A DNA stretch of 64,000 nt from contig WHUZ01000002.1 in assembly GCA_015179045.1 (NCBI GenBank), positions 124,001 through 188,000 on the forward strand. The letters run 5' to 3'. The DNA comes from Kalaharituber pfeilii. Lineage: Eukaryota; Ascomycota; Pezizomycetes; Pezizales; Pezizaceae. The notes below the pieces were generated by a model. That model was not told the origin of the DNA. It ran no database searches and saw nothing but the letters and a program-made list of their open reading frames with translations. Shown one piece after another: positions 22,406-63,369 of this stretch (position 1 is the stretch's first letter; each line of letters begins with the position of its first letter). A program made the position numbers and the translations under genes.

Positions 22406-22471
22406 TATGGCGAACAGCTGCAAGCAGGGTTACGTGAAATATTAAAAAAAAAAAAAATAAAAAAAAAAAAA
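22406..22471 (+). mobile_element. Tail B micro-retroposon
   Basis: ATGGCGAACAGCTGCAAGC, then GGGTTACGTGAAAT and two A runs. It starts 7-8 nt into the tail B core seen elsewhere. Flanks GTCTACC and GCCTACA may be a worn TSD. Confidence 0.6.
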
Positions 22472-29915: not shown

Positions 29916-30137
29916 AGAAGAGGGGAGCGGGGGGAGGGGGAGATATATAGTGGAGCCTCCCTGAGGCAGAAACCGGAAGGACCGTCCGGAGGTTTCTGGA
30001 ATCAGGTTCTAGAAGTAGATAGAAATTTCTTTGTTTGTTTAGCCTATCTCCGGGCTTCGATGGCTTGCCCAGGGACCCTGCCATGGCTTGGTGCTGCAAG
30101 CGGGGTTATGTGATGTAAAAAAAAAAAAAAAAAAAAT
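29916..30137 (+). mobile_element. SINE copy 1, 222 bp, tail B, 13-bp TSD
   Basis: It is flanked by TTTAAGAAGGCGT at 29903-29915 and 30138-30150. The body starts with a purine run (AGAAGAGGGG), contains a strong hairpin (arms CAGAAACC and GGTTTCTG, with GGAC/GTCC inside) and ends with the tail B core and poly(A). A second copy lies at 61978-62206. The last 75 nt resemble the 3' end of the ORF1-only LINE at 49.7-51.1 kb, so the SINE probably uses that LINE's machinery. I do not see a clear tRNA A box/B box pair. Confidence 0.85.
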
Positions 30138-41928: not shown

Positions 41929-44900
41929 ATGGCTACCAGGAGCAACAAGTTTGAGACTTTGAGGCTGCGAGCGACGCGTGCCAAATTCCGTCATCGACCC
42001 CCGTCGTTCCCCACACACCCCACGTTGCAGTCCGGAAAACTAGATCCGCTAGCCAATACGTCCATTGTATGCATCGATGCTCCGCTCGTTATTTTTATTT
42101 TTATTATTTTTTTTTTTTTTTTTTTCGCCGAAAATCTTCTGATGCATATATATAGAACGGGTTTATTGAAAGTCTGAAAATATTATCGTCTCGGCAAAGG
42201 ACTACAGAAGATAGCGACGCGGTCGAGGTCATTCTCAACGTAGAACCATCGAATGAAGCGGAAGGTTTGGAAAATGGTCCCAATCTAGGGTCTACCAACA
42301 TCAGATGGATGTTAGTGCCCCCAGCAGCCCTGCCATGGCGAACAGCTACAAGCGGGGTCACGTGAAATAAAAAAAAAAAAAAAAAAAAAAAGTGCCCCCA
42401 GCAACTTTAGCAATTGCGAAACCACTGGCAACGCTAATATTTCAGTTGGACGCTTAGACATCTGCATCAACCACACTTTATGGACTTGGAGAGTTTCAGG
42501 GTCTGTGAATTACCACCTCCTCACTGCGACGTTTTTAGTTCCTTCTTTAATGCTATCCACAGAAAGTCGCATTGCAGCAACCTGGCTTGACGGATGAAGA
42601 CCAACTCATCATACATCATCTATTCAAAAAAGTTCGCAGTCACGAAAAGCCAACCATTGACAGCCGTTTTTTTCGTTATCTACGACCAGATGTAATCAAA
42701 ATCAAGGGCAGTTACTCAGACAATCCAGCAGCAACAAGTGGCACGGACGAGCCTGAGATGAGCAGCGCGGAATTCATTTGCTTCCCATATTTCTCGCTTC
42801 AAGGATATGTTCCACCAAAAACCCACCTCCCAATGTCAACTGGTACCGGTAGAATGTCATTGCAGTCAATGGCCATACACCCACCAAGAACTCTTCTGCA
42901 GTCTCAATACGATATGGAGTCGACTGAAGAGCAAGATCAGCAACAAGCACGAAAACAGCAAAGGGAAACACAAGACTCTCGACTTATACATGTTCCCCAG
43001 CTCTGGGCATTGATTTTTGGCAAGAGTGCGTACAAGTCCCCACCAATCCCCATTGAAACTACAGTCGATATCAGCTAGTAGATTAGTACGTATGCAAAAC
43101 ATTGACGTACTCTCTCTGCCCAGATTTCCTTTTGACGTGCGCAACACTTCCTCTAATGCACCTCTTTGGAGAAACTATCTTCGTGGATGACGCTCCAAAG
43201 GAAGAAGATGTTGGCTTTGTGGTAAAATTGACTGATCATCGAACGTACAAGTCGCATTTGATCAGGCTAGGCCCAGATAAGACATGGCTTGTGAGTGAAA
43301 TAGAACCCAATTTATGCACTGAGGTGCTCACTTTTCTTTGTGTTACTCTAGGAGTTTCTTTACCGCGTGGAATTGTTAAAGGCAACTGGCGCACTTTTCT
43401 TTGACACATTTGACGAGTTGCAATTTACATCGACTAGTGGAGAATCAATAACGGAAGCACAATGGCCGACAGTAGTTTATCCAGTCAATGAAATTGAAAT
43501 AATCTTGCGAAGTGCCAGCACAAGAAATGACCCCTTGTGGGAACTAGACCATCACCGTCACGGCGACACTCAGAGAGATAGCTCACCAGATTTCTACGTA
43601 GACACACCAATTCGAACAGCCTCTCCGGTGCATACGGAAGCCATCTCGCGCCCAGAATCTCCGGGCGTTGGCGCCAGCACACCTCGCTCCTCTGATGGCA
43701 AAGCTACTCCTGCACCTAGATCGATCCGTACGAGTGAGAAGATGCGTGAGCATGAAGCAACATTGCCCAGCAACACATTTGGGCAATCGGCCAAACTGCA
43801 AGAGCCTGCAGGCTCAGAAGACCACATCGATTCACGAAATGATGGGAGGCCAATTGTAACGCCCTCGGTGCAGACAGGTGCCCACTTTCCCACACGGCCA
43901 GTGGAGCCGCCCTCCACAGGCGCAAAGTTTCCCCGAGAACGTGGAGAATCTACGCCGAAATCTCATGTCTGGTTTGACCCTTCGCCGCAGTACCATTTTT
44001 ACGGGGACAGGGTTCCCGGGGACCCATATCATGGGCCACCACCTCACCCCACTGTATTCGATGGCCACTACCAAGGTCAATACGCATATCAGACCCCTCC
44101 CGCCGAGTCCTCTAATTCAGCATACAGGCGCTCGACGAGAGCAAGCGTTAATTCAGAATACCAAACAAGAGCAAGTATCGATTCAGCACGCCTCAGGAGC
44201 AATGTGATGGGCGGGCCTGAGAGCCGAGCGACAACGGCCTTTCCTCAGGGTGACATCTTCTATTCAGCAGGCTCACAGCTACGTACGCAGCAGCCAAAGC
44301 CTGAGGCTGCACAAAGGAGTAGCAGACATGACCCCGTAGTATTTCCGTCCTCGCGTTCGGAGCCTGAACCGACGAGGACAGCGCCAAAGTCCACAAGGCC
44401 AATGACGCGGCAATCCTATGGTGACCCCCTTTATCGTACCCCCACCCTGGAGAGCCTATATCGGCCGTATGCGGCCCAAAGGGCAAACACGTCCTTGTAC
44501 GGCCATCCTCCAGCTCAGGCTAACCCAAGCTCATCGTTGCCTGCCAGACCCATTAGTCATGGCTATGGGGATCCGCCATCCGTGCCGTATTATGAACCAC
44601 CTCGACCATCCCCACCATCACGCACGCCAACATGGGACATGCCACCAGTTCCTATACCACCAACTTCACGGTACAGCGTTGAACTTCCGCTGCGGCCACC
44701 GGAGCGTACAAAAATTGTGGGTGAGACAAAACTTGGCGAGACTCAGACTGCGCCTGTGGCGCGCGTAAAGGTCCAAACGCGAGATAAGCCACCCATGCCA
44801 TCTGACCCAAAGGGGCAGGCCGCATCACGACCCCCATCACGACCCCCATCACCTTCCCTTCCGCATAATACGGAGAGTGCTGAACCAATCCGTAACAGTA

Positions 44901-46636
44901 GCCCAACACCCAATACAACCAAAGGCCCTGGCGTAGATGTCCCTAGCCACGTGCCACCGTTCTTTATGTGGCCTATTCAAAGAAGTTCCGGAACTAGGAC
45001 CCCTTTTGAAAACGAGGCCGAGCCATCCGAACCCAGCACATCCGAGACTTCCAACCCTTCGGACTCTAAAGGAAAGTCCCTAGCGAGATCTGAGACGGAA
45101 AACCCACAGTTGCAGCCCAACGAGGAAAGTGCACGGATTATCCTTAAAGACGTGGCGTATACTTTAAGGCACATGGAGGAGTTCAACATAGATGGAATAT
45201 ATGATGCGACTTCATTATCAAGTTTACAGGCGATTCAAGAAAGGAAGAAGGGGCTCAAACTTCCTGCCTCTATAAGTGAGGCGCATGATCGCCTTCTTAT
45301 GCGCGCAAAAGAGGTATTGGAATACTTTGTGCCTGAGAATATGGAGTCTGAGGTCATATGGAAATACTGGGGCGCACTCGATGATATTGTCTATGTAAGT
45401 CTCGCATCTGACATCCCCGACCTCCCAATTGTATGGCAATCTTCCGAAGGAATAATTGGTGTCAGCTCACTAATTCAGTATATGACTTACAGAAAACGCC
45501 CAGTGCGCTATCAGTCCCCAAAGTGGAAAAGATTGAGGCCCAGCTCGCACTTATTGCCAAGAAGGCCCAAGCAATTCGAAGTGGTGTCTCGAGTACCAAT
45601 GCAGACCATCCCTCGTACTATCGTGTTCCTGTCGATCTGGTGCAAGCTTTTGTAATGCTACTGGAGGCACTATTGCTCTATGGCTATGGTGGCTCTTTTG
45701 CAGGGCAAAAAGCGGGAAATACGGCTGTCCACGAGTGCCTTGAGAGCATGCAAGAGGCTGTATACCAGCTCTTGACCATGCTGCATGTGGGTGACTATAG
45801 CCATGGCGCCGTTATCGAGCTGGTGGGAAGACATAACCTTCTTGGACTAGTTTTATTGAACTTGCTAAGCGGTTCATCGACTAGCACATGGGGCCCGATG
45901 GAGGAATTCGACACACTGACTTACTTTCTACGAAAGACAAACAAATTGGTAAGTCACATGTCATGCCGACCATTTGCTGTATGTACCAGTCCGGTTACTA
46001 ACAAGTGGGTAGCGCTTCCAAATACAACGCAGACCGCGTAGGCAGCTCCTCGGCGACGTGCACAGTGTGACGCAGGGGCTCGCAGCAGTGCATGCCATAT
46101 TGCTGCAACAACACCACTGCTTGAGTTTAGCCCAGACGCCAGAATACCATCCAGACAAGTATTTCTCGTACGAATACTGCACGGAATTTGTAGATTCTAA
46201 GATAACATGGTTACGCCAGTTACAAGACAATGTTCATTGGCTCCCAGCACAGGTATGATTTCCTGGGTCTTAAAGTTCGTCAGAATCCAAAATGGAAAAT
46301 CTGCTCTGTAGGTATTCTGGATCCCTTGAGCTGAAGCAATAATGCCACGTTTTATAGTTACTCCAACTGTTAGATGCAGACAAAGATAGTAACGACAAGG
46401 CAATCGTCGCATTTACTACGGTCACAGTTATATTCCTACCGCTGTCATTCGTCTGTAGCTATCTTGGTATGAACACGATAGACATCCGGGAGATGGATCG
46501 CGGAGTATGGATCTTCTGGGCCACTGCAGTCCCAGTAACATTTGTAACCGTTCTGGCAACCTTGATAATTGCGTTTCAATGGGAGAAGCTGAGAGACTTG
46601 CTGGAGGATGTATTAGAGGGGCAGCTGAAGCGGTAA
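41929..46636 (+). CDS. CorA-like membrane protein, nine exons
   Basis: A consistent model is exons 41929-42066, 42156-42310, 42446-42500, 42563-43025, 43124-43290, 43352-45394, 45493-45948, 46013-46252 and 46358-46636: 3,996 nt, about 1,331 aa, all phases compatible, every intron GT-AG. The N-terminal half follows fungal CorA-like proteins (TNIRW, FPYFSL, HPPRT, RLIHVPQLWAL, WLEFLYRVELL). A long Pro/Ser-rich, probably disordered region fills most of exon 6. The C-terminus has a conserved KDSNDKAIVAFTTVTVIF helix into TM1, then YLGMN (the CorA GMN motif), and TM2 (WIFWATAVPVTFVTVLATL). CorA proteins carry Mg2+ across membranes; transport by this fungal group is unproven. A GTAAGT at the stop codon could extend the protein through one more intron (acceptor near 46719). 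A tail B micro-retroposon sits in intron 2. Confidence 0.8.
42327..42390 (+). mobile_element. Tail B micro-retroposon in an intron, 13-bp TSD
   Basis: The 64-bp insert is the tail B core (GCCCTGCCATGG ... CACGTGAAAT) plus about 21 A, flanked by AGTGCCCCCAGCA at 42314-42326 and 42391-42403. Without it and one TSD, intron 2 of the CorA-like gene would be 58 nt; with it the intron is 135 nt, and both splice sites are intact. Confidence 0.95.
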
Positions 46637-47154
46637 GTGGGATATCTATGAACTCAGTATGAACTTATGATATTGGATGGCGAGTTCAATCATTGACCAA
46701 TGTGGCATCGAGATGCAGGCATCTACCTGGCTATCGTAGGCAACCCACTGGAGCTGGGTACATGAGTACCTAAGTTGGGTTTGAGGTTTCTTTGGGGCGT
46801 GTTATCGGTGTTTTGCGGGAGCACAAGAATGCACAGGTTGCAATTAGGTCTTCGAATGCTAGGCTGAGTTAGGGTTAGGTAAATAGCACGCTTCATTATG
46901 ATTGTCCAAGTCGTCGATGCCCAAGTTCGGTCATTATTCCTTGCTTTTTTTCCCCCTCTAAGTATCATTACTCATATAACGCCCTATGGGCTATGAAGAG
47001 AGTTTGCTTCTTGCTCCCAAACCAGTTATAAGGACGAACTGTCCTGGAAAAGTTGCATGCTTTCCGTTTCTATGTACATAGGTCATCATATGTAGCTCTT
47101 TAGACCTACAGGGGATGTTTTTGAAGCCTGCCTTGTAATCTGTACGCAGCTTAT

Positions 47155-47157
<3 letters not shown>
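46637..47157. other. 3' flank of the CorA-like gene with a tail A relic
   Basis: At 46963-46996 a decayed tail A on the minus strand (ATCATTACTCAT, CGCCCTATGGGCTATG) remains without poly(T) or TSD. No gene is supported. Confidence 0.5.
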
Positions 47158-47194
<37 letters not shown>

Positions 47195-47232
47195 CACGTG
47201 ACCCCGCATGCAGCTATTCGCCATGGCAGGGC
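47158..47232 (-). mobile_element. Tail B micro-retroposon, 14-bp TSD
   Basis: About 35 T, then the complement of the tail B core. It is flanked by ACGCAGCTTATGTT (47144-47157) and ACGCAGCCTATGTT (47233-47246), one mismatch. Confidence 0.9.
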
Positions 47233-47375
47233 ACGCAGCCTATGTTACCCTGCTCCTGTTCTGTTATGGGATGGTAACAACCGAGTGAAAGTAACCCCAA
47301 TGTACCTATCATAGAGGCAGGTTAGCTTTTATGCTGATCAGCTGCTGTCAATTGGGCAACTTAAAGGTAGTCTGA

Positions 47376-47429
47376 GCCCTGCCATGGCGAACAGCTACAA
47401 GCGGGGTCATGTGATACAAAAAAAAAAAA
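47376..47429 (+). mobile_element. Tail B micro-retroposon, 10-13 bp TSD
   Basis: GCCCTGCCATGG ... GGGGTCATGTGATAC plus 12 A (54 bp in all), flanked by GGTAGTCTGA at 47366-47375 and 47430-47439. Confidence 0.93.
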
Positions 47430-48073
47430 GGTAGTCTGACTTTTTTTAAGGGCACTGCACCCACCCAGAAATTCAAAGCCCTTCCGACATGTCAGGAGGC
47501 CAATGCTGACATGTATTACGGTTTCTACGATGATGTGGTAAATAGAGGGTGTAACTTAGAACAACACTTTGTCGGGACCTCTCCGGGCAGGCCAGTCTGG
47601 CCTGCCCCGATGCAGGGGTATCGACAGGGAACTGTAGACTAGCCTGCCCGGTTGGAGAGGTATCTACTAGCCGAAAAAATAAGTATCCGGACAGGGGATA
47701 AATGCATATTATGCGCTATGCAGCATTTGCTCTAAACTAGCATATGTTTCGTATTCTTGACTGTGGATATCCATGAGACTAGTTCAATTTCGTAATAGAT
47801 TGTCCAAATTCGCATACCAAATAGCCCAATATTGCTTTTATCAATAAAACAATGTCTACAATAATGAAGATACTGAAATCAACATGCACTAACATCATTG
47901 AGAATGCACATATGCATCAGCTACAAATCTTGAAGTTGTGATAAAGTGCAGATGAGAGTACTGCTACTGGAAGGAGGTCACTACTGCTTGTTTTCACTAC
48001 TATTGCAGTGCTCTTCTGTAGCCTGTTCCAGACGCTTTTCCGGAAGCTTTTGTGGAGACTGTTCCGGAGGCTG

Positions 48074-48184
48074 TTTGAGTAGCTGTTAACATGCTACAAG
48101 CAGCTGTTTGAGTAGCTGTTAACATGCTACAAGCAGCTGCTTGAGTAGCTGTTAACATGCTACAAGCAGCTGTTTGAGTAGCTG
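48074..48184 (+). repeat. 33-bp tandem repeat, 3.4 copies
   Basis: TTTGAGTAGCTGTTAACATG plus 13 bp is repeated three times with one change, then partly a fourth time. Confidence 0.9.
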
Positions 48185-48493
48185 TTTAAGAAGGTGTCGT
48201 TCCAGAGGTTGTTCCAGAGGCTACTTTAAAAGCCGTTTCGGAGGCCGTTTGAGCTCGAACAGCCTCTCGAGCAGTATTTCAATGGCCTCTAGAACAGCCG
48301 TTGGAACAGCTCTTGGAATAGCCTTGGAAAAGCTTCTAAAAAAGCTCTGAAGAGCAGTCTTGAAATCTTAGGCCCTTTTAGAACAGTAAGTTTTGATCAT
48401 TATAATGCCTGAACCTATGCTTATCATGGTTGCCTACAGTGCCATTTTTATATTCCTAGTAGAGGGCTTATATCTATTTTCCTTGTTCTGATA

Positions 48494-48938
48494 TGTGATA
48501 ACTGGCAAGCCGAAGCGGGTTACCGAAGGAAGTTGGATGGCCGAATACAGCCGGCGATAGCAGCGGCCGAACGACGGACCAGCATGATCATGACCTCAGT
48601 GCGACCCAACATGAAGCGACCGGCTGCGTACTAACGTAGGGATCGTCTCAACGGACCGAATGGGTAGCACTGCTGACTATCTTAGTGGTTTTCCTCATGT
48701 TCTCTTTCGTCATAATGTTAGCAATGCTTCGTGTGTGTGTGTGTGTGTCGTCATTATCTGATCGTTCAGTACTTGTCACTTCGTCTACCAATATCTGTTC
48801 ATTCGCTCTCTTGTAACGAGTCCACACTGGTCAACTCAATAGTAACGATACAGCTACTCTCTCTCACATCGTGTGCCTCCGTACCCACGAATACTACGGG
48901 TTATCCTCTAGCCACGTGCCCTCGCTGTACTCCTTACA
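48494..48938. mobile_element. Solo LTR with 5-bp TSD
   Basis: The 445-bp block begins TGTGATAACT and ends TCCTTACA, flanked by TGATA at 48489-48493 and 48939-48943. It contains a GT microsatellite. It sits inside the left target duplication of the LINE insertion at 48944-49007, so it came later. It differs from the solo LTR at 2.7 kb. Confidence 0.7.
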
Positions 48939-48943
48939 TGATA

Positions 48944-49007
48944 CTTTTTTTTTTTTTTTTTTTTTTAAATCATTTCTCGCTTGCCGCCCTAGGGGCTATG
49001 GCGAAGT
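48944..49007 (-). mobile_element. Micro LINE insertion, tail A
   Basis: Poly(T) and the complement of the full tail A hairpin (loop CTA). CTTGTTCTGATA flanks it at 49008-49019 on the right and at 48482-48493 on the left, the latter now separated by the solo LTR. Confidence 0.8.
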
Positions 49008-49605
49008 CTTGTTCTGATATGTAGGTATATGACTGTTGGTATTGCAAGTTCTAAATTCATTATGTCAGCTGTCCAGATAATTCTGATATAATAAAATAGG
49101 ACACTATCTACGAAATTTGGACTGGTCTCATAAACATCCATAGCTAAGCATACGAAAATATGTTAGTTTATGCCAACTACTGCATAGCGCATAATAGGCG
49201 TTTATCCCCTGTCCGGATACTTATTTTTTCGGCTAGTAGATACCTCTGCAACCGGGCAGGCTAGTCTACAGTCCCCTGTCGATACCCCTGCATCGGGGCA
49301 GGCCAGACTGGCCTGCCCGGAGAGGTCCCGACACTTTGTGGTTGACCTTTAAGAGGGCAGCTCTTGCTGGCCCTTGTTATAGTCAATCCTGCGTGCCTTC
49401 CATCTATTGTCTAACTTGCTATGATATCATGATGTTCTATATATGGATATCCCTCAGCCACTGCCTCGCCTCATCTAGAGGTCCATCTGGTGGCTCTGCT
49501 CCTGGAGGTCCGCCGGTGGCTGACACTGTTCTATGACCATGCCATCAGATCCTTGCAATACACATCCGTGCCCGACTGATGTTTCATTGCCCAACTGCAG
49601 CTATT

Positions 49606-49676
49606 GCCCTGCCATGGCGAACAGCTGCAAGCGGGGTTACGTGAAAGAGAAAAAAAAAAAAAAAAAAAAAAAAAAA
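49606..49676 (+). mobile_element. Tail B micro-retroposon
   Basis: Full tail B core (GCCCTGCCATGG ... GGTTACGTGAAAG) plus about 27 A. Flanks share TGCAGCTA (before 49604 and from about 49679), a partial TSD. Confidence 0.85.
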
Positions 49677-49710
49677 CATTGCAGCTAGCAGCTTTATGGG
49701 CCAATATGGG

Positions 49711-51142
49711 TTTTTTTTTTTTTTTTTTTTTTTTTTATTTCACGTAACCCCGCTTGCAGCTGTTCGCCATGGCAGGGTCCCTGGACCGAAGTCCTTCTGG
49801 CCCGGAGACAGGCACCTGTGCAACTACATACAAAATCGTCCCCTGTAAAAACACACAACGATACTATGACTTCGGTGATGTGGAGGAACACAAAGCGAAA
49901 GCCCAATCCCCCAAGAGAACAATTAAGCACGAATACTCAAATATCCCCCCAGAGAATCAAGCAGTCATATCCATCTCCTCCACATCCCTCCCCTTCCCCT
50001 TTCTGTCCACCTTTGTTATTCTGTCCCAGTCATACAAGCACGAGTGGTACCATTTGCCTGATAACCGTACCTTCGCTGGTGTTTGACTATCTGATTCTAC
50101 CTCCCCCTCCAGGTAGATAACAATCGAGCTAGTCTTCTTTCCCTCCCTCCTTTCTTTTCTCACCAACCATCTTGCCGCAACAATCTTCCCCATCCATGGG
50201 TTCGCCTTTTCCATCCACTCTCTTACTTTCCCAAGTTTCTTCGTCACCGCTATGCCGTGCACCACAACTGCCCGGCCAGATTGCGGGAGCCTTTCTTTCT
50301 GGGATGTTCTTGCTTTCGGAGATGATGTTGGAGGCTTCTTGTTCTGCTTGGGGGGGTTGGTACTGGACCCCCTTGCTGCGTTTTTGGATTGAGAAGCGGT
50401 GGACCTTGTTCGGTTTTTCGGTGGTGCTGCTGGAGGTGGGTTGGTTTTTTGTGCTAGGGGTGTATTTGGTGGAATGCTTTGAGAGACGATTGCTGCATAT
50501 GACAGCGGAGGTATTGTCTCTGGCTCGGTCTGTGTTTCCCCTTCCTTTTGCCTATAACTTCGCTGTGTGGGAGCATAGTTCTTGCAACGTTCCCCTTTCG
50601 CTGCTGCTGCGAGTAAATCTATGCGCTGGTGTACGTGTCCGAGATAGCCTAGGAACAAGTCTGTTGGCTCGAAGTTTGGTCTTTTCATAAGGTCTTCTAT
50701 ACATTTCTGGATATGAATAATGATATCTCCCACTGCCTCAAGCATACAAGTCATATTAACTCCACCAAGTTTTTCAATGATTGACTGGAGCAGTGGGGCC
50801 TCGAGACGAGTACTTCTGGCAAGTGTTGTCTTGGCACCTGAAGATGTGTTTTTCGGTGCCGGGCTGCCCAATGCCGCGAATCGATTGGTTCGATCCATGG
50901 TGGAAGTGCCAAGAAGTCAGGGGTAGTAGTGTGCTTGTCAACGGAGCAGGGAGCTGAAATCTCCTCAAAACTTAACCCCCAAGGGAAACTTGAGGAGTTG
51001 GGTTTTTTGGAATAAAAGTTAGATCTAAAGACTCAGCGCACTGAGAGCTTTCGATCTATGTATGTTTCGCTGGGGGGGACGCTGTGGTTCCGGAGTGGCT
51101 TCCGAGTGCTCGTCCTGTCGAAGTGGTTGTCGCTGAGCGTCG
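49711..51142 (-). mobile_element. ORF1-only LINE derivative with tail B
   Basis: It is flanked by GGCCAATATGGG at 49699-49710 and 51143-51154. On the minus strand it has a 244-nt leader, an intact ORF1 (50898-49957), a short 3' region and tail B with poly(A). There is no ORF2, so it depends on another LINE for reverse transcriptase. The leader looks complete, which argues for an internal deletion rather than 5' truncation. Confidence 0.85.
49957..50898 (-). CDS. LINE ORF1 protein (RNA-binding, gag-like)
   Basis: The 313-aa frame starts in a good context (ACCATGG; MDRTNRFAALGSPAPKNTSS). The middle third is Pro/Ser/Lys-rich and probably disordered. The C-terminal third has an RRM-like core (RAVVVHGIAVTKKLGKVREW, then GKKTSSIVIYLEGE), as in ORF1 proteins of Tad1-like fungal LINEs. 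The CCHC knuckles that usually follow are missing, consistent with a deletion running from here into the 3' UTR. A diverged copy of the same region is at 23.75-24.25 kb. Confidence 0.75.
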   Translation of the reverse strand: MDRTNRFAALGSPAPKNTSSGAKTTLARSTRLEAPLLQSIIEKLGGVNMTCMLEAVGDIIIHIQKCIEDLMKRPNFEPTDLFLGYLGHVHQRIDLLAAAAKGERCKNYAPTQRSYRQKEGETQTEPETIPPLSYAAIVSQSIPPNTPLAQKTNPPPAAPPKNRTRSTASQSKNAARGSSTNPPKQNKKPPTSSPKARTSQKERLPQSGRAVVVHGIAVTKKLGKVREWMEKANPWMGKIVAARWLVRKERREGKKTSSIVIYLEGEVESDSQTPAKVRLSGKWYHSCLYDWDRITKVDRKGKGRDVEEMDMTA

Positions 51143-51154
51143 GGCCAATATGGG

Positions 51155-52476
51155 TTTTTTTTTTTTTTTTTTTTTTATTTCATTAATCGCATGCCGCCCT
51201 ATGGGCTATGGCGATGTTTAGTTACAGTGGTATGATGGAAAAATGATAATGAAAGAGTAAAGAAAAATCGATAATGAAAGAGTAAAGAAAATTGAACCAT
51301 CCTATTCCTCCCCCGCCCATTCCAATATTTCCGCCATGTTTGTGTCCTTATCTAACTGTCTTATCACGTCTGCTCCTCTTGCGGTTTTCCTGTTCCATGC
51401 CGAGCAGCTACTCTTTATGTGATCCCAGGTCTCCGGCGCTTCGCCGCACCATCTGCACTCCAGGGAGGTGGCCTTTCCAATCCTGAATCTCCATTCCTTC
51501 AGTCCCTTATTGCCCAATATCCCTGCCATTGTGGCCAGATACCGGCGTTTGTCGACCTTTTGGAGTGGGCGGTAGTTCAGTCCGGCTTGGTTTCTTTCGG
51601 CAGCTCTGGATGCTTTGTATTCTTGTCTTATTCCTGGCTCTGTCACTATCTCGTCTTCGCTTCGCAAGGCAGTGCCAACTTTCGCCGCTTGGTCCGCCCC
51701 CGTGTTGCCTTGTATTCCTTTATGGCTCTTGACCCACATGATCGCAAGGTCTAGATCACCCCTGGCTGCCCTTTCTTCCCAACGTCTCCTCACCTCGCTG
51801 GCGGCTCCGTCGGGTGTGGGGTCGCCTCTCGCTATCTTTTGTAGTTTTGCGATCGCCGTCTGTGAGTCGGTGATTACCATCAGCTCGCCTGGCACTTGTA
51901 GGGCCTTGCTTATCGCTATGAGCTCTCCATCGTTTACCGTGCTTCTCTTCCCCAGGTAGTAAGACTGTGCAGTGGATCGATGGTATACTCCCGCTCCCGT
52001 TGTGTCCTCTATCCTGCTCCCGTCCGTATACACCCCTTCCCATCCTTCGTCTGTCTCTCTTTCTATGATAGCTTCCCATTCGTCCCTGCTCAGGTCGCTC
52101 GGTTGTGTGGGGAACGTGTGTAGCGGTAGCGGATTCCGGTGCCTTAGATCTCCTCTCAAGTAAGCAGAGTCCATGTCCGGGCGAAGGATCGGTTCGTGTG
52201 GGAATCTCAGTGTTCTGGCTTCTACTCTCTCTCCTTCTCCTGCTACGAAAGTTTCTATCGACTCTAGGTTGACGATCCCCTCGACTATTGTTCTCCTGGT
52301 TCCCCATGGTGCCCCGGTGATGTTTCTCGCTACCATGTACTGCCATTTCTCTAGCTCCCTTAACTTCTTTCCCGGCGGAGCCCCTTTCGCATGTCTGAGC
52401 CAGGCCCAGCTCCCGTAGGTTGCGATGTTTCTGGCTATGCTGGTGTATAGCTGTCTTCTTTTGCTTGGGGGAATTT
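51155..52476 (-). mobile_element. 5'-truncated Tad1-like LINE with tail A
   Basis: It is flanked by GGCCAATATGGG at 51143-51154 and 52477-52488; the first copy is shared with the neighbouring LINE. It consists of the last quarter of ORF2, a 130-nt 3' UTR with a repeated TTTACTCTTTCATTATC word, tail A (outer stem ATCGC/GCGAT) and about 22 A. This copy shows what tail A belongs to. Confidence 0.9.
51302..52476 (-). pseudogene. LINE ORF2 C-terminal part: RT end, RNase H, CCHC
   Basis: The open frame runs from the truncated edge to the stop at 51302 (about 390 codons). It shows the end of the reverse transcriptase region (YGSWAWLRHAKG), a full RNase H domain (YTDGSRIEDTTGAGVY, DGELIAISKAL, VITDSQTAI, VKSHKGIQGNTGADQAAK) and a C-terminal zinc motif (CRWCGEAPETWDHIKSSC). 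It ends NMAEILEWAGEE. Endonuclease and RT catalytic parts are missing, so it cannot act alone. Another copy of the last few codons is at 53.98 kb. Confidence 0.9.
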
Positions 52477-52488
52477 GGCCAATATGGG

Positions 52489-52967
52489 TGGATATCCCCT
52501 TTCCGGTATGAGCGGGTCAGGGGGTACCGCCGACCGTTGCGCACCAGCCGTGAGTCCTCTGCTGGGAGGTCACTGGGCAATTCGCCTCAAAGGGATATTT
52601 CGGGTTGTACTGTGTGGTGCCGTGTTGAGTGTATGTGCAAGTGCGAATGTACAAGCAAGGCAAGATCAACTGATGTTTGTATGTCTTGAATATAGTAGAA
52701 GGATGATCAGTAAGAACACAAAGGCAAGCTACATAAAGAATAAAGGAGAACTGAAGACAGGAATTAAGAACTAAACCGTAGAATAGAAGAACTAGATGTG
52801 TAGGAAAAGAACTGAATTGTTGAATGAAGAGCTGTACAGAAGCACCGCCTCTTATAGCGATGGCCGACCGAATATCCATTTCTGATCACACTTCCTTCCA
52901 GCCTTACCCTCATTCCCAGTACTCGCTTACTGTATAACCCACGTGACCTACGACGTCCTTGAGGCTC
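52489..52967. other. No gene recognised
   Basis: Sequence right of the LINE pair. Only short frames without features. Confidence 0.35.
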
Positions 52968-53262
52968 TAGTGAGCGGCACGAGCTAGCTCGAGCCTGGAT
53001 TGATTATATACATAATATTGACAAACTAAACTAAACTAAGCTAAATTTTCATCTTTCTCACTACTATCAGCTAAATTGTGCATTTCGAAGTTGTTGGTAG
53101 GTCAGAATGAGCTCCAAGTCTCTAATTATTACTTTATTAGGTATTTACAGTTTATGAAACCTTGCACTGGCTAAGCATTTTAGCGAGCTGTCAAGAAAAC
53201 ACTATGATAGCATGATCTTGGCTCGTTTGAGCTCGAGCTGGCTCGGCTCGTGCCGCTCACTA
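52968..53262. mobile_element. MITE, 295 bp
   Basis: Perfect 17-bp TIRs TAGTGAGCGGCACGAGC (52968-52984 and inverse at 53246-53262) with further imperfect pairing (GCTCGAGCC). The edges are TA. The interior is AT-rich and non-coding. Confidence 0.75.
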
Positions 53263-53743
53263 CCTTGAGCCCAGCGCCAGTGCGGTTATAGTCTAGCAGT
53301 TAGGCGCTGACAACATGCTCCTGTCCTGCCCCTGCTGATCCACCACCTTCTTTGCGTCTCCCATTCCCCATTGCATCCTTGTACTCCTTCACCCCTAAAC
53401 ATCACGCCATGCCTCCTCCACCATTACCACTGTCATCACGTTCCCCTCTCCACCCTTCCTCAACTTCACTCCCATCCCCATCGGACTCTCAAAGAGATTA
53501 CAAATCTCCAAGACCGCTTGCAGGAGCTGCATCTCCGAAGCCGGGGAACAGAAGCGGGACGTTCCACAGAGGAGCGTCATCGGGGACAACACACGGCTGG
53601 TAGAGGTCTAAGGCGCTATGTGCGGGGATGATTAGAACCTAGGGGGTCAGGCGAGTGTATGGAATTGGATACGGGGCGCTTATATTAGCTCGGGGCGCCA
53701 GCCCTTGGTGGTCCCTTGAAGCAACCTCTGCTAGCATGCTCTC
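53263..53743. other. No gene recognised
   Basis: A tRNA A-box-like stretch (TATAGTCTAGCAGTTAGG, about 53285) has no B box behind it. An open Pro/Ser-rich frame (53371-53631) has no recognisable domain. Confidence 0.3.
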
Positions 53744-53756
53744 GAGCTTAGATTTT

Positions 53757-53820
53757 GCCCTGCCTTGGCGAACAGCTGCACGCGGGGTCATGTGATATTA
53801 AAAAAAAAAAAAAAAAAAAA
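53757..53820 (+). mobile_element. Tail B micro-retroposon, 13-bp TSD
   Basis: GCCCTGCCTTGG ... GGGTCATGTGATATT plus about 22 A, flanked by GAGCTTAGATTTT at 53744-53756 and 53821-53833. Confidence 0.93.
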
Positions 53821-53942
53821 GAGCTTAGATTTTGCGGCAGGAGAATATGTGTAGCTATACCTCTCTTTGCCCTCACTCGGGCTCGGAGAACTGAAAGGCC
53901 ACCTTTGCAACACCTTGACGAAACAATTGAATGTCGTATTCG

Positions 53943-54130
53943 CCCTGCCATGGTGAACAGCCGCACGCGGGGTCACAATATCGCCGAAATACTGGAATGG
54001 GCAGGGCAGGACTGAATTCTTCAGGTTTCTTTTAATTCCTATTTCTTCTTTGTTTTTCTTTATCAGTTTGTAAGGAATTTTAGTCTATATAAGATCTCGC
54101 CATAGCCTATTAGGCGGCACGCGAGTAATG

Positions 54131-54169
<39 letters not shown>

Positions 54170-54196
54170 CACGCGGGGTCACGTGACAAAAAAAAA
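53943..54196 (+). mobile_element. Tail B micro-retroposon split by a LINE copy
   Basis: The two parts 53943-53976 and 54183-54196 together make one tail B core with 9 A. It is flanked by GTCGTATTCG at 53933-53942 and 54197-54206. The LINE copy at 53977-54168 lies inside it. Confidence 0.9.
53977..54168 (+). mobile_element. 5'-truncated LINE with tail A nested in a tail B element, 14-bp TSD
   Basis: GCACGCGGGGTCAC, part of the tail B core, is duplicated at 53963-53976 and 54169-54182. The insert begins in the last codons of ORF2 (IAEILEWAGQD, stop at about 54015), continues through a 3' UTR and ends in tail A and about 30 A. Its hairpin has the changed inner pair (GCCT ... AGGC). Confidence 0.93.
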
Positions 54197-54206
54197 GTCG
54201 TATTCG

Positions 54207-55155
54207 AACTTATCCAAAGAATTTACTTGAAAATATAAGTCCAAACAATATACATAGAGTAGTATCAATAATAAAAAAACAACGTAAACAAAGAGCCTTC
54301 CTCTTATTTTTCTTTTACTTCTTCTATCTCTCTTTTTCTCTTTGTGTCAACATCTCTCCTTCCCCTGGCTCTTCACCAAGCTGCTTCCGTATTAATTCCC
54401 TCCTCCTCTAGCTGCACTTTTGCCTTCACCAGCTCCACGCGCAGCCTTTCCACCGTCACCTTCTCTACCAAACCCTGTGACAGGTAAATGCTGGCTAGGT
54501 GTATGACCCCGCAGGCACATCAGCAAAAACGAAAAAATCGCCCCATGCGCCTGAAGCATAGGGCGCACAGGGCAAGAACTGGGGAACATGTTGCAACGCG
54601 GTCCCGTCGCGTGCGCCATGTTGCATCCTACCATACATGGATCGCCCTGAGAAATCGGTGAATGTATCTGCCAAGTCTGGAAGATCCGCCCTTGCAAGCA
54701 GTCCCCACAACGCACAGCCAAGTGGCCTTTGCACCAGTGATTCAGCAGACTGATATGACTTGCTCTAGGAGTTCACTGGCACTGCTAACCAACTCCCTGA
54801 CCTGTCCGGTCAGGGATAATGACCTCACAGATTCATTTGCTTTTAACCTATACTCTCCTAGAGAGGGTGACTGCATCCTGCGATGCCTAAAAGAATCAAT
54901 CAAATATACTATACCTTCTTGAGAGATACTATGTTCTCTTGAAGGCCCGTTTGATCCTATAATGCCTAGAGCGAAGCTTACTAATTATGATAGCTGGTAC
55001 CTGTTACATTGGAATTCATAATGCGAGGTTCATAATGCGAGGTAACTTCATTTATTTGATCTATTATTATCTTAAAAAATTGCTCCCCATGAACCAATCC
55101 TGGGACATACAATAAAATAATCAAAACTTCCACTGAAATAGAAGTATATAGGAGA
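54207..55155. other. No gene recognised
   Basis: AT-rich then mixed sequence. 54530-54600 shares words with 60900-60970 in inverse orientation (GCATCAGCAAAAACG-like, CCTGAAGC), a weak repeat. Confidence 0.35.
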
Positions 55156-55212
55156 GCCCTGCCTTGCCCAACAGCTGCAAGAGCAGGTATATGATACAGT
55201 ATAAAAAAAAAA
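55156..55212 (+). mobile_element. Diverged tail B micro-retroposon
   Basis: GCCCTGCCTTGCCCAACAGC, CTGCAAGAGCAGGT, then a short A run. The outer stem is kept as CCTGC/GCAGG, now fully Watson-Crick. TSD unclear. Confidence 0.65.
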
Positions 55213-55254
55213 CAGTATAGCAATCACTAAGAGGAGCAAAAAAGCAGGACGGCT

Positions 55255-56130
55255 CTTACTTATTATCCTGCCATAACCTATAAGATTTAGCTTATTCTGC
55301 TGCATCTCGTGCCATAGAGAGAAATGAGTCATACCTGTCAAATTGAGCTTATTCTTGTGCTGTCGAGAGAGACTTATCATACCTGTTAATTAAGATCATC
55401 CTGCCTCATCTTACGACGTGGAAATGGTACTGCTCTTCTTATAGATTGAGTCCATATGTAGCCATTGACGGAAATCTGTCATACCTATCAGATTCAGCTC
55501 ATTCTGCCTCATCTTATACTGTTGAGAAGGGTCTACAATACCTGTTAAATTTAACTTATTATGTCTCATCTCTCACTATCAAAAGGGCCTGTCATACTTT
55601 GTTAATAGAGCTCATACTACTATATCTCCCGCCGCATCGTGAAGGGTCTACCATACCTGTGAAATTTAACTCATATTACCATATTCTGCATTGTTGAAGG
55701 CTGCCATCCTGTCAGATTAAGCTGTTGTTGCCATATCTCACATAGTTGAGGAGGACCTAGTATACCTATTAAGTTGAGCTGTTGTTGCCATATCTCGCGT
55801 GGTTGAGTGGACCTAGCATACCTATTAAGTTGAGCTAGTTAGCAGCAGTAAAAGGAGTGGGTTGCTTGTGCTTTGATTCCTGCCTACACGAGATGCAATT
55901 CGGGCATGATTTTGTTGTTGCCATATCTCGTATGGTTGAGTGGGACCTAGCATACTTGTTAAGTTGAGCTCATATTAGTATATTTCGCACCTATTAAGTT
56001 GAGCTTATGTTGCCATATCTTATACCATCAAGGTATGCGATCCTGTCAGATTAAGCCATATTTCATACCGTTAGGTAGAACGCGTTATACTTATTACATT
56101 CAGCTCATTTTATCATACGCTGTTTAAGAG
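55255..56130. repeat. Degenerate repeat of about 60 bp, a dozen or more units
   Basis: Units combine CATACCTGTTAAATTGAGCT, a TCATTCTGCC or TTGTTGCCATATCTC word and a GTTGAGAGGGACC-like word. Order is constant but length and sequence vary strongly. It looks like an old minisatellite. Confidence 0.7.
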
Positions 56131-56325
56131 AGCCCACCATACCTACAAAATATTCACGTCAACAAATACAACCTCTATGCATTAGCATATTGCACATGTC
56201 TGCCAGTAACCTAGTTGTGATGTCAGAGTGGGAGATAATCCTGGCAGTATTAACCGGCAACCTGGAAGTGTACTGATCAACAGCCTATCATCCTACATTG
56301 GGTTGCCAGCCAACCTATATGAGTA

Positions 56326-58972
56326 CTGTCGCTTACCTAATGGTGACCGACCACCCATAAGTGACCGATTAAAATATCCCTGTCAATCACCTCCCCCCCG
56401 CTTCATTTTTGCATATTATCTCACCACCCATGCATTGTTTATAGTACCTGAATATACCATTTTAATCTGCATCCACTACACTATCAAGCCACTATACCCT
56501 AGTGCCTATCCTAGCTCATTATGCCTGCATATACTGAGGAAGAAATGCAACGTGCGGTTGATTTCGCTAAACGGCACCCCTCCATTCCAAAGGCACGCAT
56601 AGCAGCTGAATATGGAGTGAATGAAGTTACACTACGGCGCAGAGTGAAGGGCGAACGCAAGGCACACAAATTTGCTTATCGGCATCGGCAGCTTTTTACT
56701 CCAGGAGAAGAATCAGCACTCAAAGAACACTGCCTTGAAATGGCCGATCGCGGTTTCCCACTATCCCACGCTTTGTTTGAGCAAATGGCACAAGATATTC
56801 TAATTTCTCGTGCTCAGAAGCATAGTACTACTGAGAAACAATGTACTGGTAGTATATGGGAGATCAGGAAGGCTCATAAGGATGCAGTAGCTAAGGGATT
56901 AGCACCTGCTATTGGGAAGCACTGGGTATCACGGTTTCTTAAACGCCATCCGGAACTTGACAAAAAGTTCGTCCAATACCACGAGCGTACACGGCGAAAA
57001 GCAGGTGCATCTAAAGAACTCCAAGCGCACTTCTATAGGCTTCTAGCAAATCTTATTCGGCGGTACAATGTCACTGAACCGAACATATGGAATTGCGACG
57101 AAAAAGGCATTATTATTGGAGATGATAAGATCAAGAAAAAATACATTGTTCGCGCAGGGACCAAAGCTGCAGAAGCACTAACTGAGGGGTCTAGAGAGTT
57201 TGTTACTGTTTTGGAGACAGTTTCTGCAGCAGGGGCGCATATACCACCATATGTGGTATACAAGGGCAAAGTTCATGTCGAAGCATCATATGGAGAAGGG
57301 GGGTACATAGCGCTGATGCGACATTTGGTATGTCACCAAATGGATATATGGATGATGATTTAGGCTTCGAGTACATCTCTACACACTTTGAGCGCCATAC
57401 CAGGCCAGCATATGATAAATCTCTGAAGAAGCGCCCTACTCGAATTCTTATTGTTGATGGGCATAGCTCTCATGTCTATTGGCGGACGGTTGAATTTGCT
57501 CTCAATCATGATATCCAGATGATATGCCTCCCACCCCATAGCACTCACTTTATGCAACCTCTTGACGTGGGATGCTTTGGCTTGCTTCAGAGAGCCTATC
57601 GGCGCAATCTACAGTACTGGCTACGTCATCATACCTTCGAAGTACTGAAACGACCGGCGTTTTGGGAAATTTTGTACGAGGCTCGCAAGGAAGTATATAC
57701 CATAGATATCATCAAGAAAGCATGGAATAAATCTGGATGCTGACCAGTCAATATTGACAATGCGCGAGGAGTACCAGCTACAGTGGGTAATGGGCCTGAG
57801 ACATCAAGGACGAAAAAGGTTAAATTTGCGCCTACAACCAATCAGCTTCAAGATACCATGATCCCTGCATTTCCTCCCGCCTCGAAGCTTCCCCCTACCA
57901 ATACTATACTATCACCACCGACGAAGCTGCGTAATCTTGCTCGCCAAATCGACCAATTCGCATTAACTCCTCAACGTAGTGCAACAATACGAGAATTCAT
58001 TGATCTTACTATGCAGCAAGTTGCATACTTCCATGAGATTCGCCCACGAGGGGAAAAATTTATGCAGCTCAGAAGTGGAAAAGAAATCAACAAGGCACCA
58101 AGCAAACGTCGAGTAGGTCAAGGGCGCGTTTTAACACGCAAGGAAATTGAGGAGGGCCAGAAGAAGTTGATTAAAAAAAAGGAGGATGAAGCTGCTGCTG
58201 CTGTATTAAAGGCTGCTAAGGCAGCAGAGAAAAAGGTTCGGGATGCAGAAAAGGCAGCTCGAGAAGCTGAATGGAAGCAGGCACGAGATGCAGCACTCGC
58301 AGCAGGACTCCCTATCCCAAAAAAGCCCCGTGCACCTCGCAAAAAAAAGGCTCCAGCTACTGATCCAATGGAGGGGTCCTCAAAAGCGGGGGAGGGGGGT
58401 TAACAGAGAATGCAGAAGGTAAGAATGCTATAGCTGTTACAAAGAATAGTGCTAATGTCACCCAAGGCCCCCCTGTAGAGGAAATATCAATTGAGGAGGA
58501 TTGGGAGGACGAGGACGATGAAATATTTGTACAACATCTTCGGCAGCTGGAAATATATAATTATATGGAAGTACGTATCTATGCAAAATCTTCATTATGT
58601 CTATAAGCTCATTAATGTATAGGATTAATTGAGTAGTAAGATGTTTTTATGCCATCTGAGAATTATATACAGCATTGACTGTATTGATTTATGGAGAATT
58701 CGAATTTTGAGGGGGTAGATATTGAGGAGGGTTGTCTTTCTATACTATTTTGGTCTAATTTTTGGATATTTCATGAGATCTTGTATTTTTTATTTTTTCC
58801 TATATCACATCTGATAGCGCAGCGCTTGTTGTATTGAGTATGACTTCGCCTATATTTTTGCCGTTTTGTTGGCGTTGGTAATAGTAATGAATTTGAAGGT
58901 GGATGCAGGGATTCCCAATTCGGTCACCTATGGGTGGTCGGTCACCATTAGGTAAGCGACAGTAACAACCAG
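56326..58972 (+). mobile_element. Pogo-type DNA transposon
   Basis: TA-flanked (56324-56325, 58973-58974), with TIRs of about 45 bp (CTGTCGCTTACCTAATGGTG ... ACCGACCACCCATA) at both ends. It encodes a CENP-B/pogo-like transposase that is now broken. At 2,647 bp it is near full length for the group. Confidence 0.9.
56521..58403 (+). pseudogene. Pogo-like transposase, one frameshift and at least one stop
   Basis: It starts at an ATG after CTCATT (MPAYTEEEMQRAVDFAKRHP). The N-terminus has a psq-type HTH (KARIAAEYGVNEVTLRRRVKG, 21-65) and a second, Tc5/CENP-B-like DNA-binding region (HWVSRFLKRHPEL, about 140). The DDE core has D at NIWNCDEKG (about 192), ILIVDGHSSH and PPHSTHFMQPLDVGCF. The frame shifts near 57316 between YGEGGYIA and ATFGMSPNGYM. 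A TGA at 57740-57742 replaces the usual Trp after SGC, in the place of the family's SGxWP motif. The frame then continues through an Ala/Lys-rich C-terminal coiled region (AAEKKVRDAEKAAREAEWKQ) to the stop at 58401-58403. It is probably inactive. Confidence 0.88.
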
Positions 58973-59162
58973 CGGCTGTGGTGGCCGGCCCAATGAGCGG
59001 CTCAATCAGCGGGCCAACATGCAGCCTAATGAGCGGCCCAACGCGCGACCTGATGAGCTGAATTTAATAACAGTAGATTCTGGCGCACCAGCATGTGGTT
59101 TGTCCCAAATCAGCAATGTCTTAACAGGGCAGCTCAAGCATACTTGCCAGATTGAGATAATT

Positions 59163-59190
59163 TTTTTTTTTTTTTTTTATGTCATTACTC
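59163..59190 (-). mobile_element. Smallest LINE insertion: 12-nt body + 16 A, 15-bp TSD
   Basis: CAGATTGAGATAATT stands at 59148-59162 and 59191-59205. Between are 16 T and ATGTCATTACTC, the complement of the last 12 nt of tail A (GAGTAATGACAT). Confidence 0.85.
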
Positions 59191-59206
59191 CAGATTGAGA
59201 TAATTG

Positions 59207-59535
59207 ACTGCCAGGAAGATATTGAGCAGATTGAGCCAATTGAGCGTATCGAGTATATTGAGCGCGGGTATGAGATATAGAGAGTAGAGAATATTGGGCA
59301 TATTGAGCCTGTTCAGCATATTGGGCATGAATTCCCGACCCGGGCTAGGAATTGACCACTTTCGCAGTGCATATGAGATGTAGAGAGTATTAAGCACATT
59401 GAGTACGCCATGAGTTGCAGAGAATATTGACTGCACACATGACGTATGGAGAGTATTGAGTATATTGAGCCCACGCATGAGATATTGAACATGTTAAGTA
59501 TATTGAGTATTTACTGCGCGCATGAGATATTGAGC
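59207..59535. repeat. Degenerate ATTGAG-rich repeat
   Basis: Words such as GTATATTGAGC, CATGAGATATTGAG and AGAGAGTATTGAG recur irregularly. The antisense frame (LNILNTLHTS-type) only reflects the repeat. Confidence 0.7.
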
Positions 59536-59989
59536 AGAAATGGAATCGGCATGCCGAAGGTGATATGTATGAATTACGGGACTACGAAAGGGCCTCACGC
59601 CGACCTATGCTGAAGGCGATATACATAAACTAAGGGCCCCACACCGACAGCCAGCGTCAGGCTGCAGGTCAATTATTGTAATTGCATTGTGGATACCCAA
59701 ATGCGCCGAGATGCAATAATCATTAATCAAAGGTTCACTTGTAGCATCAGGATGCAACAGGGTGTAAGATCTAGCGTCAGAACGCTGGGGCGCATAGAGC
59801 GCAATACGAAAGGCGGGTTGCATCAGGCCGCTGAGTCAGTATGCCTGGACGCAACCTTTGTTTTGGTCATGGATGCCCACTACTTAATTGAAATAAACTT
59901 TAACTGTTGTAAAGGGAGCTTTAGAACCTGGGCCACTCGCATAGTCACTTACTCGGCTACTTATTGGGCTGCTCAGCGGGCTGCTCATT

Positions 59990-60048
59990 GCCCTGCCATG
60001 GCGAACAGCTGCATGCGGGGTCACGTGAAACAAAAAAAACAAAAAAAA
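59990..60048 (+). mobile_element. Tail B micro-retroposon, 12-bp TSD
   Basis: Full tail B core plus an A-rich tail with two C, flanked by GGGCTGCTCATT (59978-59989; 60049-60060). It lies in the right arm of the older inverted-repeat element. Confidence 0.93.
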
Positions 60049-60192
60049 GGGCTGCTCATTGGGTCGGCCACTACAGCCGCTGGTTGTTACTCACATGGGT
60101 CGGCTGGCAACCCAATATAGGATGATAGGCTATTGCTCAGTACACTTCCAGGTTGCCGGTTGATACTGCAGGAATTACCCCTCATTCTGACG

Positions 60193-61977: not shown

Positions 61978-62171
61978 AGAAGAGGGGAGGGGGGAGAGGT
62001 GGAGATATATAGTGGAGCCTCCCCGAGGCAGAAACCGGAAGGACCGTCCGGAGGTTTCTGGAATCAGGTTTTAGAAGTTGATAGAAATTTCTTTGTTTGT
62101 TAAGCCTGTCTCCGGGCTTCGAGGGCTTGCCCAGGGACCCTGCCATGGCTTGGCGCTGCAAGCGGGGTTAC

Positions 62172-62206
<35 letters not shown>
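61978..62206 (+). mobile_element. SINE copy 2, tail B
   Basis: Close to the copy at 29916-30137 over about 200 nt, including the CAGAAACC/GGTTTCTG hairpin and tail B (CCATGGCTTGGCGCTGC variant), then about 30 A. No TSD was found, so one flank may have been deleted. Confidence 0.85.
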
Positions 62207-63266: not shown

Positions 63267-63353
63267 TTTTTTTTTTTGTCAAATAACCCCACTTACAGCT
63301 GTTCGCCATTGCAGGGCCCCTGGGCCGGAGCCCTCGATGCTCGGAGGCAAGCA
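63267..63353 (-). mobile_element. Longer tail B insertion, 13-bp TSD with two mismatches
   Basis: Poly(T), the complement of the tail B core (outer stem CCCTGC/GTGGGG) and about 35 nt more (GCCTCCGAGCATCGAGGGC) shared with the SINE and LINE 3' ends. Flanks TAGATCAGCCGGA and TAGATCTGCTGGA. Confidence 0.8.
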
Positions 63354-63369
63354 TAGATCTGCTGGATGA

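What the first reader, a model, noticed from the sequence alone, without database searches (positions are those of the whole stretch)
42327..60048. Ultra-short tail B retroposons that all start at the same base
Copies at 42327, 47158, 47376, 49606, 53757, 53943 and 59990 consist of a 38-42-nt core beginning GCCCTGCC, plus poly(A), with TSDs of 8-14 bp (clear in six). Random 5' truncation should give scattered starts; a shared start suggests a discrete small RNA or a fixed RT stop. The core folds (CCCTGC with GCGGGG; GGC with GCT inside), so the start coincides with the base of the hairpin. A family of true retroposons this short is, to my knowledge, unusual.
Basis: partly seen in the sequence, partly recalled or inferred. 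Interest (0 to 1): 0.78.

Follow-up and report, generated by a model that had tools for sequence, protein, structure and literature searches.

The report
Thousands of 39-base LINE-tail insertions
A desert truffle genome carries a great many tiny inserts, each just the last 39 or so bases of a jumping gene plus a run of A, and about half of the sampled copies begin at nearly the same base, which points to an unusually precise cut-off in the copying process.

Summary
Confirmed and extended. The window lies in Kalaharituber pfeilii, a desert truffle. The short copies are real retroposons: (G/A)CCCTGCC...GTGA, 39 nt, poly(A), target-site duplications (TSDs) mostly 10-15 bp, and empty sites visible in related repeats. 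RCCCTGCCATGGC has 3,439 hits genome-wide; only 1,119 carry the upstream module. Of 100 copies chosen by their 3' end alone, 47 have TSD-supported starts at 36-45 nt (23 at exactly 39) and 9 at 74-79. The core is the 3'-terminal hairpin of APE-RT-RNase H LINEs. Several LINE subfamilies and two further tails, A and C, also give ultra-short copies starting at or within a few bases of their hairpin base. Most likely the template RNA itself ended there, as a hairpin-capped 3' fragment of LINE RNA. A precise stop of the reverse transcriptase is nearly as likely: junction statistics do not decide, and a fungal LINE with nucleotide-precise switch sites is in print. Ten searches of an open-access library found no report of tail-only copies this short. 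New variant of LINE-mobilised non-autonomous retroposons.

The parts
42314..42403 (+). Ultra-short tail-B copy: TSD 42314-42326, core 42327-42365, A tail, TSD 42391-42403
47144..47246 (-). Ultra-short copy: TSD 47246-47233, core 47232-47194, A tail, TSD 47157-47144 (one mismatch)
47363..47439 (+). Ultra-short copy: core 47376-47414, TSD AAAGGTAGTCTGA at 47363 and 47427
49596..49687 (+). Ultra-short copy: core 49606-49644, 8-bp TSD TGCAGCTA at 49596 and 49680, extra TT before the core
   Evidence: below the 9-bp limit
53744..53835 (+). Ultra-short copy: core 53757-53795, TSD GAGCTTAGATTTTGC (two bases shared with the core)
53933..54206 (+). Ultra-short copy split by a nested tail-C element (about 53977-54168, own TSD GCACGCGGGGTCAC); outer TSD GTCGTATTCG
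59978..60061 (+). Ultra-short copy: core 59990-60028, TSD GGGCTGCTCATTG (one base shared with the core)
   Evidence: a diverged window repeat at about 58961-59026 looks like the empty site (81.8% over 66 bases)
55156..55194 (+). Degenerate ultra-short copy, no clear TSD
49740..49819 (-). Full tail (upstream hairpins and core) at the 3' end of an ORF1-only element
62101..62175 (+). Full LINE-type tail, GGCTTGGCGCT subfamily
30034..30113 (+). Full LINE-type tail, GGCTTGGTGCT variant
63279..63358 (-). Full LINE-type tail, diverged, with compensated HP-A changes

Best explanation
Shown: the copies are target-primed insertions of the 3'-terminal stem-loop plus poly(A) of LINEs that encode an AP-type endonuclease, reverse transcriptase and RNase H, and about half of all sampled tail copies start within a few bases of one nucleotide, the 5' base of that stem-loop. 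Inferred: the start is fixed because the template RNA already ended there. LINE RNA is left as a short polyadenylated fragment capped by a stable hairpin, by 5'-to-3' decay stalling at the hairpin or by a cut beside it. The LINE machinery, which probably recognises the hairpin and the poly(A), copies the fragment to its end, sometimes adds a base, and joins the cDNA to the target. The rarer start at 74-79 nt, at the 5' base of an upstream 7-bp hairpin, would have the same cause.
For: 5'-end histogram with two sharp classes at the 5' bases of HP-C and HP-A; none at the weak HP-B (one uncertain value, 58, lies in an ATT repeat). Start base follows the LINE subfamily: GCCC, ACCC, and T-CCC for tail A. 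Same behaviour in the unlike tail C: 7 of 38 copies have TSDs ending 1-3 nt before CGCC and none of the TSD-supported ends lies at 4-60 nt. Nine single extra bases's set are T (5) or C (4), none the G that the LINE has there; the pairs are TC, AT, TT. Empty sites. LINE partners with the same tail. An end at the 5' base of a hairpin is what a 5'-to-3' exonuclease barrier gives; passages of PMC11331408 call stable 5' structure such a barrier for R2 templates.
Against: No RNA data. [quoted passage not shown] One tail-A copy (L178) has an extra G that could be templated. In the longest tail-A stretch folded, the best structure does not keep the core hairpin, and the start T of tail A is unpaired. 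Full tails fold no better than shuffles (z -0.85 to 0.42). The share of short copies is very unequal between subfamilies: 38 short against 10 long for GAACAGC-type, 8 against 13 for the other tail-B type, 1 against 11 for tail A in the sample.
Confidence: 0.45

Rival explanations
1. Fixed RT stop: the template is longer LINE RNA, and the LINE RT regularly stops or falls off at the start base, just before the GGG run and upstream structure; the aborted cDNA is integrated.
For: In the fungus Magnaporthe grisea template switching of the MGL LINE was reported at specific nucleotides, some shared by independent copies, and ascribed to pausing (passages of PMC2104539). The base before the start is G-rich in tails A and B (GGG). 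55% direct joins equals truncated human L1 in PMC4245944. Some LINE copies do have ends at 99-301 nt (9 of 100, some uncertain), so truncation happens.
Against: The M. grisea motif GCC*A/U is not at the start here. A hairpin-caused stop should lie at the 3' side of HP-B, four bases further upstream. The 74-79 class lies at the 5' base of HP-A with no G run or hairpin next to it in the tails listed. Tail C has no GGG before its start.
Confidence: 0.36
2. Dedicated short RNA gene(s): one or a few loci transcribe the 39-nt RNA and act as masters, as for a SINE.
For: GAACAGC-type cores make up 38 of 47 short copies and are rarely long. A transcript would have a fixed start.
Against: Short copies occur with the core variants and start bases of several LINE subfamilies and with tails A and C, so several genes would be needed. 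No Rfam match at E 1 or below in the four loci scanned. 39 nt leave no room for two promoter boxes (inspection).
Confidence: 0.13
3. Random 5' truncation with micro-homology to the target setting the start.
For: 15 of 62 junctions share at least one base with the target.
Against: 47 of 100 copies in a 10-nt range; 34 of 62 junctions with no shared base.
Confidence: 0.02

Closest known systems
SINEs with a LINE-derived 3' tail (stringent type; review PMC3747384, passages seen)
   Same: Share a 3' stem-loop with a partner LINE, end in poly(A), have TSDs, non-autonomous.
   Different: SINEs carry a promoter-bearing head of tRNA, 5S or 7SL origin; here there is nothing but the tail.
5'-truncated LINE copies (PMC3747384, passages; PMC4245944, passages)
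   Same: Same 3' end, TSDs and poly(A) as the LINE.
   Different: Described as truncated at various positions, 100-1,000 bp; here 39 nt with a shared start.
Tailless retropseudogenes of mammals (mentioned in PMC3747384, passage)
   Same: Very short retroposed RNA fragments.
   Different: They lack poly(A) and derive from truncated tRNAs or SINE RNAs; here poly(A) is present and the source is a LINE tail.
Mg-SINE and MINE chimeras of Magnaporthe grisea (PMC2104539, passages)
   Same: Non-autonomous copies made by a fungal LINE; nucleotide-precise switch sites in the LINE RNA.
   Different: Longer, chimeric or SINE-headed; the precise sites are switches between RNAs, not free 5' ends of a 39-nt insert.
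Tad1-type fungal LINEs (clade name recalled, no call)
   Same: ORF1 with CCHC knuckles; ORF2 with endonuclease, RT and RNase H.
   Different: They are the presumed partner, not the short element itself.

Membership tests
LINE-machinery retroposon | TSDs flanking the insert | tested here: met
   64 of 79 against 2 of 387 with exchanged flanks
LINE-machinery retroposon | 3' poly(A) | tested here: met
   seen in copies; note that the pattern requires it
LINE-machinery retroposon | Pre-insertion site without the insert | tested here: met
   15 of 62 joined flanks had a spanning match in fetched material, some of them tandem, self or low-identity matches; 9 were viewed, cleanest L004/L011 and L119/L068
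SINE | 3' tail shared with a partner LINE | tested here: met
SINE | Head from tRNA, 5S or 7SL RNA with internal Pol III promoter | tested here: not met
   39-nt insert is LINE tail only; no Rfam match in L149, L150, L151, L158; promoter boxes judged by eye
5'-truncated LINE copies | Scattered 5' ends | tested here: not met
Tailless retropseudogene | No poly(A) | tested here: not met
   poly(A) present
Tad1-clade LINE (the presumed partner) | ORF1 with CCHC knuckles, ORF2 with endonuclease, RT and RNase H | tested here: met
   one copy on C26
Tad1-clade LINE (the presumed partner) | Placement in a tree of LINE RTs | not tested
   no tree made
Discrete small RNA template | A polyadenylated RNA of about 40 nt plus A tail with this 5' end exists in cells | not testable with these tools
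   no RNA data held

The most novel reading that the evidence does not exclude
The genome records RNA decay intermediates: hairpins at the 3' ends of several LINE-type tails stop 5'-to-3' degradation, and the left-over stem-loop-plus-poly(A) fragments, perhaps the smallest unit that a LINE machinery accepts, have been retroposed thousands of times. The terminal hairpin plus poly(A) would then suffice for retrotransposition.
Probability: 0.36. Interest if true: 0.8.

Novelty: new variant of a known kind. Interest (0 to 1): 0.62.

Why it matters
A 39-nt insert with poly(A) and TSDs shows how little RNA a LINE needs to copy. The near nucleotide-precise start makes it possible to tell apart two causes of short LINE copies: a reverse transcriptase that falls off, or templates that are already short. 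Inserts this small would slip past repeat-finding programs, and perhaps past fungal defences that act on longer repeats (inference, not tested), so similar elements may sit unseen in other genomes as a source of hairpins, A runs and changes in introns and UTRs.

Tried and rejected
Chance: rejected. Random truncation: rejected. A known structured RNA: no Rfam match at E 1 or below in L149, L150, L151 and L158. A single master gene: not favoured (several subfamilies and tails).

Superseded counts: one search used a loose pattern that shifted the register in some rows, replaced; one search merged copies with identical flanks (94), replaced (100). Rows left out: one search uses 62 of the 67 TSD rows, dropping L083 (-19, an ATT repeat), one at -6 (L078), one at +8 (L004) and two mid copies; the 62 hold 2 tail-A copies. 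In one search ten copies lack the upstream module but have no TSD at the start; some look short by eye, but they are in neither class. L132 has one TSD at 99 nt and another at the short start. A divergent copy at 22412-22437 gives only a weak 8-bp TSD at 65 nt.

Limits: the 100 copies are exact matches's pattern in L003-L032 and L069-L148, meant to be its first 100 places (contigs C1-C3), not a random draw and not matched one by one to the list. Copies longer than about 345 nt were not sized. 3,439 minus 1,119 overstates the short class by copies with a mutated module, and the tool calls such counts lower bounds. Alignment A1 holds 28 of the 64 distinct tails and no tail A. On it, two of five covariation measures do not stand out: pairs changed on both sides (70 of 500 shuffles reach it) and further pair types (497 of 500). 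The base at the 5' end of a TSD is partly ambiguous with the A tail.

Literature: ten searches, of which I saw listings; passages were read in PMC3747384, PMC4245944, PMC11331408 and PMC2104539. No report of tail-only LINE copies of this size was seen, but subscription journals are mostly missing from the library.
Full report
Where it is. The window is part of contig C112 of a 78-Mb, 360-contig genome. The ORF1-like protein at 49957-50898 (-) has 8 relatives at E 0.001 or below, all in Kalaharituber pfeilii at 40-99% identity, and two of their source contigs have the lengths of C290 and C2 (lengths). So the genome is that of this desert truffle (Pezizaceae, Ascomycota).

The seven copies are present with TSDs of 8-15 bp. 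Genome-wide, CATGGCGAACAGCTNCAAGCGGGGTNANGTGA with up to 2 mismatches has 2,744 hits and none read backwards. RCCCTGCCATGGC has 3,439 exact hits, 2 in the control; with CCAGGG in front, 1,119.

The start is shared. A pattern made only of the 3' end and A tail has 3,790 hits at up to 1 mismatch. In 100 exact matches from the first contigs, 47 have TSD-supported starts 36-45 nt before the end of GTGA (23 at 39, 10 at 38), 9 at 74-79, 34 carry the upstream module and are longer or unsized, and 10 are undecided. In all fetched material 62 short copies have TSDs of 9 bp or more, with a peak at 13-14 bp. Of these 34 are direct joins, 15 overlap the target and 13 have extra bases. The nine single extra bases are T (5) or C (4), never the LINE's G; among the three extra bases of tail-A rows, one (L178) is a G that could be templated. 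Exchanged flanks give 2 of 387 comparable TSDs against 64 of 79. Around the 5' end of the TSD, T at -2 (33 of 62) and a pyrimidine at -1 (49 of 62) suggest an endonuclease preference.

They are true insertions. Of 62 joined flanks, 15 had a match running through the junction in fetched material, some of them tandem, self or low-identity matches. Nine were viewed; L004/L011 and L119/L068 are the cleanest, and L118 lies in LINE ORF2-like sequence.

The source is a LINE tail. Of 6 stretches fetched beside RT hits, 5 hold the tail on the strand of the RT. L150, L151 and L155 match the end of ORF2 and the 3' UTR of the C32 LINE over more than 900 bases at 82%, and L150 and L151 have exactly the 39-nt core of the 42327 copy. 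One copy on C26 has an ORF1 with two CCHC knuckles and a 1,248-codon open ORF2 frame with endonuclease, RT and RNase H, the layout of Tad1-type LINEs (name recalled, no tree). The RT's PDB relatives include LINE-1 ORF2p and R2. Of 9 relatives of the C-terminal part 7 are named as K. pfeilii and 2 are unnamed metagenome or genome entries.

Anatomy. The full tail-B RNA has HP-A (AAGCCUG/CGGGCUU), a weak HP-B, a 4-nt linker, and HP-C, which with its 3' flank is the whole short element. On 28 of 64 distinct tails 97.1% of pair cells are standard. Three of 7 HP-A pairs and two of 4 HP-B pairs have changes on both sides, HP-C none; cells paired, cells changed on both sides and the covariation score exceed all 500 shuffles, two other measures do not. 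The 39-nt core alone folds better than most shuffles (z -1.98), the full tails do not. The two start classes lie at the 5' bases of HP-C and HP-A; none lies at HP-B, bar one uncertain value at 58. For tail A the best fold of the longer stretch does not keep the core hairpin; the 41-nt stretch alone does, with the start T unpaired.

Generality. Short copies carry the core variants GGCGAACAGCT, GGCCACGTGCT, GGCCAAGTGCT and GGCTTAGTGCT, each with its own start base. Tail A (CCCTGCCATAGGC): 672 hits, 300 with GGGT. Of 20 fetched copies without GGGT, 18 have T at the start position, but some of the 20 are not short; in all 34 tail-A rows, 8 have a TSD next to the core, 5 at T and 3 with one extra base. 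Tail C, a different hairpin, has 4,836 hits at up to 1 mismatch. Of 38 copies in fetched material 7 have TSDs ending 1-3 nt before CGCC, that is at or within a base or so of the hairpin base, 8 have ends at 61-390 nt and 23 have none found (one of the 7, L080, has an A-rich TSD). Its source element was not identified.

How it works. That these are LINE-tail retroposons is shown; why the start is fixed is inferred. A template that already ends at the base of a stable hairpin explains both start classes, the lack of a class at the weak HP-B, the subfamily-specific start base and three unlike tails. A precise RT stop explains the main class about as well: M. grisea MGL shows nucleotide-specific switch sites (passages of PMC2104539). 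Junction types do not decide: 55% direct joins lies between the 82% and 5% reported for full-length and truncated Nimb-2_DR and equals the 54% for truncated human L1 (passages of PMC4245944). The unequal share of short copies between subfamilies is not explained by either.

Known or new. PMC3747384 (passages) describes SINE/LINE pairs sharing a 3' stem-loop, and LINE copies truncated at various positions, 100-1,000 bp. No report of tail-only retroposons of about 40 nt was seen. I file it as a new variant of LINE-mobilised non-autonomous retroposons. It is not filed as a SINE, because the promoter-bearing head was looked for and is absent.

Noticed in passing
window 237, 5788, 24045, 33051, 54098 (+) and 23534, 23680, 28532, 48977, 51187 (-): A third tail family (tail C, hairpin [CA]UCGCCAUAGCCC..GGGCGGCANGCGA, 4,836 hits genome-wide) whose mostly longer element was not identified; 7 of 38 copies in fetched material are ultra-short.
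   Followed up: partly
window 49740-50898 (-): An ORF1-only element: a 313-aa open frame without Pfam match followed by a full tail-B end; related proteins are all in the same species. Looks like a half-LINE.
   Followed up: partly
window 47570-47720 and 49183-49333: 151-bp inverted repeat, 97% identical, framing about 1.76 kb: probably the ends of a DNA transposon or similar; the ultra-short copies at 47376 and 49606 lie just outside it.
   Followed up: no
window 48081-48185: Short tandem stretch with units around tgttaacatgctacaagcagctg, seen by eye.
   Followed up: no
L118 (G000:C2:509747-510243): An ultra-short copy inserted in sequence that resembles LINE ORF2 (72.7% to L181), i.e. tails insert into other LINE copies.
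   Followed up: partly
L170 (G000:C2:684390-684650): A tail-A copy that by eye has a longer, mid-type form with flanking GGCGACAGGC repeats, hinting at a second start class in tail A too; one search found no TSD next to its core.
   Followed up: no
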